Source of the DNA: Candidatus Poribacteria bacterium
Lineage (GTDB): Bacteria; Poribacteria; WGA-4E; WGA-3G
Assembly: GCA_026702755.1 (NCBI GenBank)
Contig: JAPPBX010000018.1
Span: 1-64,000 of the forward strand
Direction of reading: 5' to 3'
DNA: 64,000 nt
A model generated the notes under the pieces. It saw nothing but the letters and a program-made list of their open reading frames with translations. It had not been told where the DNA came from and did not search any database. Below are positions 56,399-59,605 of the stretch, one piece after another (position 1 is the first letter of the stretch; each line of letters begins with the position of its first letter). The translations under genes and the position numbers were made by a program.

Positions 56399-57247
56399 TT
56401 ACTGTTTCTTGATATGCGCCCATGTAGTAGCGAGTTTTCCTTGTGCTTCCACATCGACAGTCGCACCAACAGTCGCACCATCAGCGAGTTCCTTGACTTC
56501 GTCTTCGCTAAGCGCACGTTCCCAAAAGTAGACCTCGTCAATCATACCATCAAGCCAGAAGTCGTTGCCTGCATTGCCACCGACTTGCCGTCCGACACCG
56601 ATTTCAACCGGACGCTCCGGGAACGTCCGAAGCGGTGTCTCAATTGACCTTGGATTGGACTGTCCACTGGGGGGAACCACAGTACCATCGGTGACAGATG
56701 AGGTCACATACGCTGTGGCTTCTGTACCATTAACAACGTAAGCGACGTGCACCCATTCGTCTACTGCGTAAACATCGTTGGTGGCGAACCAACCTTCACT
56801 GCCTTCCCAGCAACTGCCCCAGGTCATGTTGGTGTCACTCGTGGTGCACATTCGCACCATGAAGTGGTCACCCCAACCGACCTTGTCGCCTTTGAAGAAC
56901 ATTCCTGCGTGGTCTCTGCCGCCGCCTTCCCTGACGTTAACCCACAAGGAGACAGAGAAAACCCCATCTTCTTTTTCAAGGCTTGCAGCGGAAGGGATTT
57001 CGACATATTGTCCGGTGTTTTCACCGGTCGCGGGATTCTCGGGATTGTCAAGGTTGAGTGCCATCCCGTGACGACCGTCTGCAGTGCTGGCACCGTTCAT
57101 GAATTCGCCATCGTTGCTTCCAATAGAATCGTTCGCTGACCCGTCGTCAAAGTTCCAGACAGAAACGAGACCATCTTCAAGCTCGGCGTAACTGTTGGCA
57201 CTGAATACCATAAGTGCTAAAATGAAAAACAGACACATCTGCTTCAT
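56399..57247 (-). CDS. Secreted LamG-domain protein with C-terminal W-G tag (copy 3)
   Basis: The 282-residue protein has a signal peptide (about 1-21, SANSYAE) and one LamG domain: LVSVWNFDDGSANDSIGSND, VFSVSLWVNVREGG, VDEWVHVAYVVNG, LDGMIDEVYFWERALSEDEV. It ends QGKLATTWAHIKKQ; here Ala replaces the tag Gly. It is a paralogue of the next gene upstream (57337) and more distantly of the pair at 12065/13962. Ligand binding outside the cell is likely. Confidence 0.85.
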   Translation of the reverse strand: MKQMCLFFILALMVFSANSYAELEDGLVSVWNFDDGSANDSIGSNDGEFMNGASTADGRHGMALNLDNPENPATGENTGQYVEIPSAASLEKEDGVFSVSLWVNVREGGGRDHAGMFFKGDKVGWGDHFMVRMCTTSDTNMTWGSCWEGSEGWFATNDVYAVDEWVHVAYVVNGTEATAYVTSSVTDGTVVPPSGQSNPRSIETPLRTFPERPVEIGVGRQVGGNAGNDFWLDGMIDEVYFWERALSEDEVKELADGATVGATVDVEAQGKLATTWAHIKKQ

Positions 57248-57336: not shown

Positions 57337-58170
57337 TTAACGGTGGTGATAGGATTTGACCTTGCCCCACGTTGTGGCTAATTTTCCCTCCGCCTTCACA
57401 GCGAGTGCCCTATCTGGACGTTTGCCACTTCCGAGTTCCTCTACTTCAGCTTCAGAGAGCGCACGGTCCCAGATGATAACATCATCGATGATGCCATCAA
57501 GGAACGTATCGTTGCCATCATTACCACCGAGACCTCGACCTGCACCGAGTTCCAAAGGACGATCTGGGAACAGAACATAGGGTTCCGCGGCGGCTCTCGG
57601 GTTCGATTGACCGCTGGCAGGTATTTCGGTTTTCCCGCCCTCTGGCGTTGCGTATCCAATTGCCTCTTTACCATCTACCGTTTGACAGAGATGGAACCAC
57701 TTATCGGCCTCAATGGCACCATCCGTAGCGAACCAATTTTCGGCACCTGCACTGCAGGTTCCCCACGTCAGACCGGTACTACTGGTCGTTACCATACGGA
57801 AGGTGAAGTTTGCACCCCAACCGACCTTTGCACCCTTCCAAACGCCGGAGTGGTCTCTACCTTCTCGGACATAGAGCCAATAAGAAACGGTATGCGCTCC
57901 CTCAATCACTTTTTCAAGAGCATCGTTGAATTCAATATCGGCACGTGTGTCGTCATTTCCGTCAACATCCAATGCCTTGCCAAATTTGCCATCCCCTGTG
58001 ATTTTAGCTCCCTTAAAGAGTTTACCGTGTGCCTTTCCAACGGCATCCGTTACCTTGCCATCGTCAAAGGTCCACGCAGCGACGACTCCGTCATTTAGGT
58101 CTGCGAACGCAGAAATTGAAATGCCAATCGTCAACACAGCAATGGCAAGTATTGAAATAAATAGTTTCAC
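57337..58170 (-). CDS. Secreted LamG-domain protein with C-terminal W-G tag (copy 4)
   Basis: The 277-residue protein has a signal peptide (about 1-23, ISAFAD) and a LamG domain: GVVAAWTFDDGKVTDAVGKA, HTVSYWLYVREGRDHSGVW, ADKWFHLCQTVDG, LDGIIDDVIIWDRALSEAEV. It ends GKLATTWGKVKSYHHR, the tag followed by a His-rich five-residue extension. It forms a likely two-gene operon with the gene at 56399 (89-base gap). Confidence 0.85.
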   Translation of the reverse strand: MKLFISILAIAVLTIGISISAFADLNDGVVAAWTFDDGKVTDAVGKAHGKLFKGAKITGDGKFGKALDVDGNDDTRADIEFNDALEKVIEGAHTVSYWLYVREGRDHSGVWKGAKVGWGANFTFRMVTTSSTGLTWGTCSAGAENWFATDGAIEADKWFHLCQTVDGKEAIGYATPEGGKTEIPASGQSNPRAAAEPYVLFPDRPLELGAGRGLGGNDGNDTFLDGIIDDVIIWDRALSEAEVEELGSGKRPDRALAVKAEGKLATTWGKVKSYHHR

Positions 58171-58605
58171 TTAAATTATCCTCCTTTAGTGGATTTCAGT
58201 CATAGATAGACACTAATTGGACTCTACAAGAAAAGTCCGTGAGATTTGTGTCATCCACGCCAGTCTTTAATTCGGGCGATCCGATTCGCCCATTTTCAAG
58301 TTGCGGTGCGTAATTCACCGGTAATAGATAGTCGTCTAACACCGCGTTAGCCCCTGTTGTAGAGTGAGTGGTAGATTACGCCACGATGGCGATAAATCAT
58401 CCTACGACGAACTCATCAAGAATGTGCGGTAAACGCGGCATTATCTTTGTAAAAAAATTTAACGAAAAAAACGAACCATTTAAAAAAAAACTCGTCTAAA
58501 TAAATGAACGCAAAATAGGAATGCCTCCTTGGAAATTGACGGTTACAATTCCAGTAACTTCAATTACTATCAAAACAGGGGTAGATACTTAAATATTTTG
58601 CGTGT
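58171..58605. other. AT-rich intergenic DNA, no gene seen
   Basis: It includes a strongly A-rich stretch (about 58450-58500). I found no coding frame or recognisable RNA. Confidence 0.4.
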
Positions 58606-58682
58606 TAAATCTATGGGATGCTCCTTTTCGTGTTTGGTGTGTGGTGCAGTATAAACACTGTAAAGGAGTTCCTATAGATTTA
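58606..58682. ncRNA. 77-base hairpin, possible structured RNA or miniature repeat
   Basis: TAAATCTATGGGATGCTCCTTT (first 20 bases from 58606) pairs imperfectly with AAAGGAGTTCCTATAGATTTA ending at 58682. An inner GTGTTT/AAACAC pair extends the stem. It lies just before the first AGCTAAAGCATGG-type hairpin. RNA function is unproven. Confidence 0.35.
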
Positions 58683-58968
58683 ATCATTTCTTGACACACT
58701 CACCATGCTAAAGCATGGTGATTCTTTTGCACATTATGTAGAAAGTCAATATTGCACACTACCTAATTAATTTTATAGTAAAATTTACAGTGGTTTGCTT
58801 GTAACTTTCTACCACAAATTGAAAATACGCATATCAATCCATGATACATCACAGAACAATATGCGCATTGACTGAAAACCATCCATATTATACCATACCA
58901 GCATTTAAATATCAAACTAATTTGACAATCTAATACCAAGTATAGTATCATTATATACGTAAAAGGCG

Positions 58969-59029
58969 GTCGGGAATGACCCCGACACTTAAAGGCAACA
59001 CTGCCAACCTTAATCAAGGTGTTAACACC
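58969..59029 (+). ncRNA. Multi-hairpin segment upstream of the GIY-YIG-like gene
   Basis: Four consecutive helices can form: GTCGGG/CCCGAC (58969-58986), GGCA/TGCC (58994-59005), ACCTT/AAGGT (59007-59020) and the palindrome GGTGTTAACACC (59018-59029). The last two overlap and would be alternatives. It could be a leader RNA or an element-end RNA; no known family is recognised. Confidence 0.35.
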
Positions 59030-59084
59030 ACCTCAATTAACCTAATATTTCCACAACCAAATAGAAATATAGGAGATTTACAAG

Positions 59085-59429
59085 ATGAGAACTACAAATT
59101 TAAACTGGAAAGAATATCAACATCTCGATGATTTCAGACATGACAGGAAACTGTCAGATATTGATTCTGGAGTTTATATCATTTGGACGTATGTTCAGAA
59201 TAGTATTAAAATTCTATATACAGGACAAGGTGATATTAAAAATCGCTTTTATTGTCACAATAGTCAAACAGATTGGGGTGAACACTTTCCATTACTTACT
59301 GCTTGGGCGAATACTTTGGATATGAACGGCATTGAGAAGTTTCTCTATGAGACTCTTAATCCTGAAATTACCAAAGCAGCTCCAAGATCAGCACCCATAC
59401 CTGTTAATCTACCGCCAAGTTTGAATTAG
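59085..59429 (+). CDS. Small GIY-YIG-like nuclease domain protein
   Basis: The 114-residue protein has the order expected of a GIY-YIG domain: GVYIIW (GIY equivalent, about residues 28-33), ILYTGQG (YIG equivalent, about 43-49), an arginine in IKNRFYCH (about 52-59), and a late glutamate with Asn in GIEKFLYETLNPEITKAAPR (about 83-102). Nuclease activity is therefore likely; stand-alone domains of this size occur in mobile elements and homing nucleases. The ATG follows ATAGGAGATTTACAAG. It has its own terminator and sits between hairpins that may be element ends. Confidence 0.6.
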   Translation: MRTTNLNWKEYQHLDDFRHDRKLSDIDSGVYIIWTYVQNSIKILYTGQGDIKNRFYCHNSQTDWGEHFPLLTAWANTLDMNGIEKFLYETLNPEITKAAPRSAPIPVNLPPSLN

Positions 59430-59438
59430 ATTTAACTA

Positions 59439-59484
59439 CAAAAGGCTTTGAAGATGATTATTTATACACTTCAAAGCCTTTTGT
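59439..59484 (+). terminator. Terminator of the GIY-YIG-like gene
   Basis: AAAAGGCTTTGAAG and CTTCAAAGCCTTTT form a 14-bp perfect stem around a 16-base loop, ending in TTTTGTTT. Confidence 0.8.
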
Positions 59485-59605
59485 TTATTCACCGCATTAG
59501 CAGAGTCTACATCTCCAAGCTAAAGCATGGAGTTTTGACTCTGTAGAGGATGATAACAATTAATTACAATATTTTACTGTTTTTGTCAAGAAAAAAATAA
59601 CATTT

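What the first reader, a model, noticed from the sequence alone, without database searches (positions are those of the whole stretch)
58606..59546. Possible new mobile element: GIY-YIG-like gene between IS605-style hairpins, with a structured leader
Hairpins CACCATGCTAAAGCATGGTG and CTCCAAGCTAAAGCATGGAG bound a unit with a multi-hairpin segment, a 114-residue GIY-YIG-like protein and a terminator, but no transposase. IS200/IS605 elements normally carry TnpA or TnpB with an RNA at one end. A GIY-YIG nuclease with a nearby structured RNA could be a different cargo or a homing system.
Basis: partly seen in the sequence, partly recalled or inferred. Interest (0 to 1): 0.6.

Follow-up and report, generated by a model that had tools for sequence, protein, structure and literature searches.

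The report
Gene-carrying jumping element without transposase
An 862-base mobile DNA element of the IS605 type carries a small GIY-YIG nuclease gene where such elements normally carry TnpB; related genomes show the exact empty site and a second element of the same design, so a passenger nuclease appears to travel between borrowed transposon ends.

Summary
The unit is window 58691-59552 (862 bp, minus-oriented): a transposase-free IS200/IS605-type element. It starts 3' of TTAT, has a left-end palindrome at 59513-59532 and a right-end palindrome at 58701-58720, and ends in TCAA with a GAAT guide, the same right-end signals as IS608. A related genome holds the empty site to the base (...ATTTC|ATAAC...), with no target duplication. 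The 58605-58683 inverted repeat lies outside. The 114-aa protein is a GIY-YIG domain by fold and conserved residues. No TnpA, TnpB or IsrB remnant and no TnpB- or IsrB-type guide RNA was found inside. A second element (1393 bp, other genome) with the same ends and a homologous GIY-YIG gene interrupts a response-regulator gene, restored in frame when the element is removed. In the same genus these left ends carry TnpB, IsrB, a GyrI-like gene, or nothing. Most GIY-YIG relatives are ordinary chromosomal genes. Best reading: a passenger gene in a palindrome-associated element moved in trans by a Y1 transposase. An RNA-guided system is not supported. A protein-only retention or homing nuclease is possible but unproven.

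The parts
58691..59552 (-). whole element (862 bp), transposase-free IS200/IS605 type, own orientation minus
   Evidence: exact empty site in relative G023 (L138): CTATTTC|ATAACAATTAATTAC; ends in own orientation TTAT|CATCC...GTGTGTCAA|
59553..59556 (-). target/left cleavage tetranucleotide TTAT, in the flank 5' of LE
   Evidence: same TTAT flank at most related LE copies; IS608 uses TTAC (PMC5934647)
59513..59532 (-). left-end palindrome (IPL), with an outer 7-bp stem 59501-59507/59537-59543; candidate left guide AAAA at 59533-59536
   Evidence: LE model 50.9 bits
58700..58721 (-). right-end palindrome (IPR)
   Evidence: (45.0 bits); same motif 3' of TnpB at C117 and C58
58721..58724 (-). right guide GAAT
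   Evidence: identical to the IS608 right guide (PMC5934647)
58691..58694 (-). right cleavage site TCAA
   Evidence: identical to the IS608 right cleavage site
58922..58951 (+). sigma-70-type promoter match TTGACA-18-TATCAT, 11 of 12, likely for the GIY-YIG gene
   Evidence: consensus match only
58959..59084 (+). structured 5' leader of the GIY-YIG gene (several short hairpins), function unknown
   Evidence: z = -3.5; not an omegaRNA of the local types
59085..59429 (+). GIY-YIG nuclease-domain protein, 114 aa; G29-V30-Y31, Y45-T46-G47, R54, E84, N108
   Evidence: AlphaFold2 pLDDT 87.3 / pTM 0.82; best PDB folds UvrC, I-TevI, R.Eco29KI, PD-T4-3; alignments
59438..59484 (+). intrinsic-terminator-type stem, 16 bp perfect, then TTTATTC after the TTTTG end of the stem

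Best explanation
The unit is a non-autonomous IS200/IS605-type element (a palindrome-associated, transposase-free element, PATE-like) that carries a complete, independently transcribed GIY-YIG gene as a passenger. Shown by sequence: precise ends with IS608-like recognition signals, a base-exact empty site without target duplication, a second element with the same ends and a homologous GIY-YIG gene at another site in another genome, and the absence of any transposase, TnpB, IsrB or omegaRNA of the local types inside. Inferred: it was excised and inserted as single-stranded DNA 3' of TTAT by a Y1 (HUH) transposase acting in trans; the GIY-YIG protein is an active metal-dependent nuclease; its benefit is to the element or host as a passenger (for instance restriction- or defence-like), not in the transposition chemistry.
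For: Empty site in G023, with flanks 58690 and 59553 directly joined. RE carries GAAT-palindrome-TCAA, exactly as IS608 (GR GAAT, CR TCAA; PMC5934647), in the window, L137, L182, TnpB elements and most PATEs alike. The second GIY-YIG element L137 (1393 bp) sits at TTAT inside a response-regulator ORF that becomes one 650-nt frame when the element is taken out. At least 16 LE copies of the genus adjoin TnpB, 6 IsrB, one a GyrI-like passenger (L182, 740 bp, PF06445 E = 1.3e-16), and about 20 are gene-free repeats of roughly 370-520 bp. GIY-YIG fold and conserved catalytic-type positions. Y1 transposase genes are present in the same genome (4 over cut-off).
Against: Only one copy in this genome and two GIY-YIG elements found in 38 genomes of the genus, so current mobility is not shown. 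The cognate TnpA was not identified; the TnpA+TnpB elements examined (L107, L189) have different flanking tetranucleotides. No expression or activity data. Pfam does not call the window protein itself GIY-YIG; the assignment rests on relatives, the model and residues.
Confidence: 0.72

Rival explanations
1. The GIY-YIG protein stands in for TnpB/IsrB as a retention or homing nuclease: it cuts the sealed donor site (or empty allele) after excision, so that repair from the sister copy restores the element, without guide RNA.
For: It occupies the place of TnpB/IsrB between the same ends, in two elements at different sites. The two element-borne proteins are each other's closest relatives (weak support). 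TnpB is proposed to do this job with an RNA guide (PMC8612924). GIY-YIG nucleases such as I-TevI are homing enzymes (fold match).
Against: About 30 homologues in the genus and relatives are ordinary genes without these ends. The window protein is one small domain with no separate DNA-binding domain. The two elements sit at different targets, which a fixed-sequence nuclease could not both recognise beyond TTAT and the element ends. Another passenger (GyrI-like) uses the same ends.
Confidence: 0.12
2. RNA-guided or RNA-partnered GIY-YIG system, in which the structured leader is a guide or scaffold RNA.
For: Leader region folds better than shuffles on both strands. IsrB elements with the same LE have their guide RNA upstream of the gene in the same orientation.
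Against: No match to the TnpB-type or IsrB-type RNA models or Rfam. Leader not shared with the second GIY-YIG element. The same ends with no such RNA carry a GyrI-like gene.
Confidence: 0.03
3. A dead relic: the element inserted once in the past and can no longer move, the gene being kept or decaying as a chromosomal gene.
For: Single copy in the genome.
Against: Ends, guide and cleavage tetranucleotides, promoter match, RBS, ORF, conserved residues and terminator are all intact.
Confidence: 0.12
4. An ordinary chromosomal gene that happens to lie between two unrelated hairpins.
For: Most homologues are chromosomal genes.
Against: Base-exact empty site spanning both hairpins and the gene and a second element of the same design.
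Confidence: 0.01

Closest known systems
IS608 / IS200-IS605 family (Y1 TnpA, TnpB)
   Same: Subterminal palindromes, insertion 3' of a TTAN tetranucleotide, right cleavage TCAA with guide GAAT, no target duplication (PMC5934647)
   Different: No tnpA or tnpB; target TTAT rather than TTAC; carries a GIY-YIG gene
PATEs (palindrome-associated transposable elements; Haloquadratum, PMC3119063)
   Same: Transposase-free, near-terminal palindromes related to IS605-type transposons, no target duplications
   Different: PATEs were described as too short to code for a transposase, some being end-only remnants of IS605-type transposons; this one carries a complete foreign gene with its own promoter match and terminator
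GIY-YIG nuclease superfamily (UvrC N-domain, I-TevI, R.Eco29KI, PD-T4-3)
   Same: Fold and conserved GIY, YIG, R, E, N positions
   Different: Stand-alone 114-aa domain, about 12-20% identity to solved structures, no known DNA-binding module
Passenger-gene insertion sequences (transporter IS; from general knowledge of IS biology)
   Same: IS ends carrying a gene not needed for transposition
   Different: Here on IS605-type single-strand ends; no paper linking GIY-YIG to bacterial IS605 ends was found in the searched library

Membership tests
IS200/IS605-type element (ends) | subterminal palindromes at both ends in the same orientation | tested here: met
IS200/IS605-type element (ends) | insertion 3' of a specific tetranucleotide, no target duplication | tested here: met
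   TTAT at the window, L137 and most LE copies; exact empty site and in-frame rejoined gene
IS200/IS605-type element (ends) | guide and cleavage tetranucleotides as in IS608 (GR GAAT, CR TCAA) | tested here: met
   against PMC5934647; left guide/cleavage pair differs (AAAA?/TTAT instead of AAAG/TTAC)
IS200/IS605 autonomous element | encodes Y1 transposase TnpA | tested here: not met
   no TnpA or TnpB remnant in 58691-59552
PATE (non-autonomous IS605-type element) | transposase-free, palindromic ends shared with transposons of the genome | tested here: met
PATE (non-autonomous IS605-type element) | mobilised in trans by a resident TnpA | not testable with these tools
   four Y1 genes over cut-off in the genome, cognate one not identified
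GIY-YIG nuclease superfamily | GIY-YIG fold | tested here: met
   model pLDDT 87; the 5 best Foldseek rows are UvrC GIY-YIG domains (prob 0.97-0.99, E 0.02-0.04); rows 2-13 of VIA-align are GIY-YIG enzymes, Z 5.5-7.3
GIY-YIG nuclease superfamily | conserved catalytic-type residues Tyr, Tyr, Arg, Glu, Asn | tested here: met
   Y31 and E84 invariant, R54 and N108 nearly invariant in 12 relatives; Y45 present in the window protein but V or K-V in some relatives
GIY-YIG nuclease superfamily | Pfam PF01541 gathering score | tested here: inconclusive
   window protein no hit; relative L070 over the cut-off (23.4 against 22.6 bits)
GIY-YIG nuclease superfamily | nuclease activity | not testable with these tools
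   needs an assay
OMEGA (TnpB/IscB/IsrB) RNA-guided system | RuvC-type nuclease with omegaRNA at the element end | tested here: not met
   no TnpB/IsrB, no omegaRNA of the local TnpB or IsrB types
Homing endonuclease system | cleavage of the empty allele followed by copying of the element | not testable with these tools
   no assay; two elements at unrelated sites

The most novel reading that the evidence does not exclude
A protein-only GIY-YIG nuclease has replaced the RNA-guided TnpB/IsrB as the retention factor of an IS605-type element, giving an RNA-free 'peel, paste and copy' cycle in which the nuclease recognises the sealed TTAT donor joint or the element's palindromic ends.
Probability: 0.1. 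Interest if true: 0.85.

Novelty: new variant of a known kind. Interest (0 to 1): 0.47.

Why it matters
IS200/IS605 elements are usually described as carrying only transposition genes (PMC8612924). Here one set of ends in one bacterial genus carries TnpB, IsrB, a GIY-YIG nuclease, a GyrI-like protein or nothing. That shows IS605-type single-strand ends can ferry unrelated genes, and it offers a natural comparison of which accessory nucleases help an element persist. If the GIY-YIG protein does a TnpB-like retention job it would be a new, RNA-free solution.

Tried and rejected
Rfam at gathering and permissive thresholds on the window unit: only chance matches far below cut-off. ARAGORN on the window and on 19 loci, L137 among them: no tRNA. 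Covariance models of the local TnpB-type (R1) and IsrB-type (R2) guide RNAs: held-out positives found, window negative. TnpB/TnpA/IsrB remnants inside the elements: none. Phage and plasmid collections with the protein: no match. Genome contigs by protein: 80 pattern hits, none confirmed; by LE pattern: none (the pattern was strict, so this is weak evidence). AlphaFold2 from the single sequence was useless (pLDDT 36); the alignment-based model was good. PDB sequence search: no GIY-YIG entry found by sequence, two chance ribosomal-protein rows. PADLOC: weak matches to candidate PDC-S14 (0.0056 for the window protein, 9e-7 for a relative), a hint only. The TnpA+TnpB elements L107 and L189 as source of the transposase: ends related but flanking tetranucleotides differ, left open.

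Full report
OBSERVATION. The hairpin consensus occurs nowhere else in the 64-kb window, and shuffles give none. What had to change is the extent of the unit and its orientation.

THE ENDS ARE IS605-TYPE ENDS SHARED BY MANY ELEMENTS. In the window's own genome (5.84 Mb, 126 contigs) both hairpins recur as dispersed repeats of two kinds. The genome has 21 matches to the TnpB C-terminal domain and Y1 transposases. Hairpins like the one at 58701 (TTGACAtACTC-palindrome-GATTC) lie just 3' of TnpB genes, and hairpins like the one at 59513 (TCTACATCTC-palindrome-AGTTTTGA-outer stem) lie just 5' of TnpB genes. So the first is a right end, the second a left end, and the window unit is an element lying on the minus strand.

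EXACT BORDERS. The flanking DNA is conserved in other genomes of the genus, which lack the unit. The best relative for this purpose, G023, reads ...CTATTTC|ATAACAATTAATTAC where the window has ...CATTTC (58690), the 862-bp unit (58691-59552), then ATAACAATTAATTAC. There is no target duplication. In the element's own orientation the flank ends in TTAT, the element begins CATCC, and it ends in TCAA; GAAT stands at the foot of the right palindrome. IS608 has right cleavage site TCAA, right guide GAAT, left cleavage site TTAC, left guide AAAG (PMC5934647), so the right-end signals are identical and the left target differs in one base.

A SECOND ELEMENT. In relative G026 (L137) the same pair of ends encloses a 1393-bp element with a homologous GIY-YIG gene in the same orientation and an extra 155-codon ORF of no known family. 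It sits after TTAT inside a response-regulator gene; taking the element out in a script rejoins one 650-nt frame, cut only by the end of the contig. The terminator and left-end region of the two elements is 74% alike over 139 nt, and each GIY-YIG protein is the other's closest relative, though with weak tree support. A common ancestral GIY-YIG element is likely but not proven.

WHAT ELSE THESE ENDS CARRY. Around 60 left-end loci of the genus were fetched and scanned. At least 16 adjoin TnpB, six adjoin IsrB-like RRXRR proteins without an evident HNH domain (PF14239 1.8e-28), one full unit (L182, 740 bp) carries only a GyrI-like protein (PF06445 1.3e-16), and about twenty are gene-free repeats of roughly 370-520 bp in several families. 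GIY-YIG is therefore one of several passengers on one set of ends.

THE PROTEIN. Direct Pfam search of the window protein gives nothing, but a relative passes the GIY-YIG cut-off. In an alignment of 26 relatives W8, G29, Y31, G47, E84, L87 and P110 are invariant; R54 and N108 are nearly so in 12. The alignment-based AlphaFold2 model (pLDDT 87, pTM 0.82) has as its best PDB matches the GIY-YIG domains of UvrC; VIA-align adds I-TevI, R.Eco29KI and PD-T4-3 (Z 5.5-7.3, middling by itself, but rows 2 to 13 are all GIY-YIG enzymes and the next rows drop to 4.5 and below). Activity is inferred, not shown. About 30 relatives in the genus and neighbours are chromosomal genes with no such ends, apart from one (L059) that has a left end of another subtype right at its start.

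THE LEADER. A strong promoter match (58922-58951) would start transcription at about 58958, directly before the structured stretch, so the simplest view is a structured 5' leader of the nuclease mRNA. TnpB elements with these ends share a conserved guide-RNA region, which the window element, L137 and L182 lack. Models of the TnpB-type and IsrB-type guide RNAs find held-out members (L103 95.6 bits; L228 100.4 bits) and nothing in the window. The leader is not shared with L137. Structure on the - strand is even stronger (z = -7.1), because the region holds several long imperfect palindromes; its meaning is open.

MECHANISM. Shown: insertion as a precise unit with IS608-like signals. Inferred: single-strand excision and insertion by a Y1 transposase in trans; the cognate transposase is not pinned down, since the TnpA elements examined have other flanking tetranucleotides. 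The GIY-YIG protein is most likely a passenger. That it acts like TnpB, cutting the sealed donor joint so that repair restores the element (the role proposed for TnpB, PMC8612924), fits its place but has no direct support, and the different target sites speak against a fixed long recognition sequence.

NOVELTY. Transposase-free IS605-type elements are known (PATEs, PMC3119063). In the library searched no paper connects GIY-YIG with bacterial IS605 ends; that library leaves out most subscription journals. I file this as a new variant of a known kind: a PATE-like element with a nuclease passenger.

Noticed in passing
L232:3070-3176 and L165:957-1050: Gene-free repeats of about 520 bp with the same left end score 23.9 and 19.8 bits with the TnpB guide-RNA model although they encode no TnpB: possible transposase-free elements that keep a guide RNA and could use TnpB in trans.
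   Followed up: partly
L182 (G024:C222), about 740 bp ending at the LE: Element with the same ends whose only gene is a GyrI-like small-molecule-binding protein.
   Followed up: partly
L103 and L158, up to 3.4 kb left of the LE: Two loci share 366 nt (89%) next to the LE; between TnpB and the LE lie small lipoprotein-like genes (L103) or an M10-type peptidase with dockerin (L158), perhaps larger passenger-carrying TnpB elements.
   Followed up: partly
L157, L160, L161, L169, L177, L178: IsrB-like RRXRR proteins with an upstream structured RNA that Rfam does not recognise at E below 1; they use the same left end as TnpB elements but in the opposite orientation.
   Followed up: partly
L137:2748-2825 (+ strand of the locus, antisense to the GIY-YIG gene): tRNA-like stretch with a canonical T-arm GGGGGTTCGATTCCTCC in the leader of the second GIY-YIG element (tRNA-Sec model, 19.1 bits, below cut-off); ARAGORN finds no tRNA.
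   Followed up: partly
58441-58690: Intergenic stretch with a long inverted repeat (58605-58683) that recurs at several unrelated loci in the genus: a dispersed repeat of its own.
   Followed up: no
G000:C95:27325-27990 (L104): Two left ends in opposite orientation about 600 bp apart, conserved in G001 (L245): head-to-head pair of repeats.
   Followed up: no
56399-57247 and 57337-58170: Two adjacent paralogous LamG-like genes with signal-peptide-like starts; the GIY-YIG element inserted between the second and a gene with FG-GAP-like repeats (by eye from the translations).
   Followed up: no
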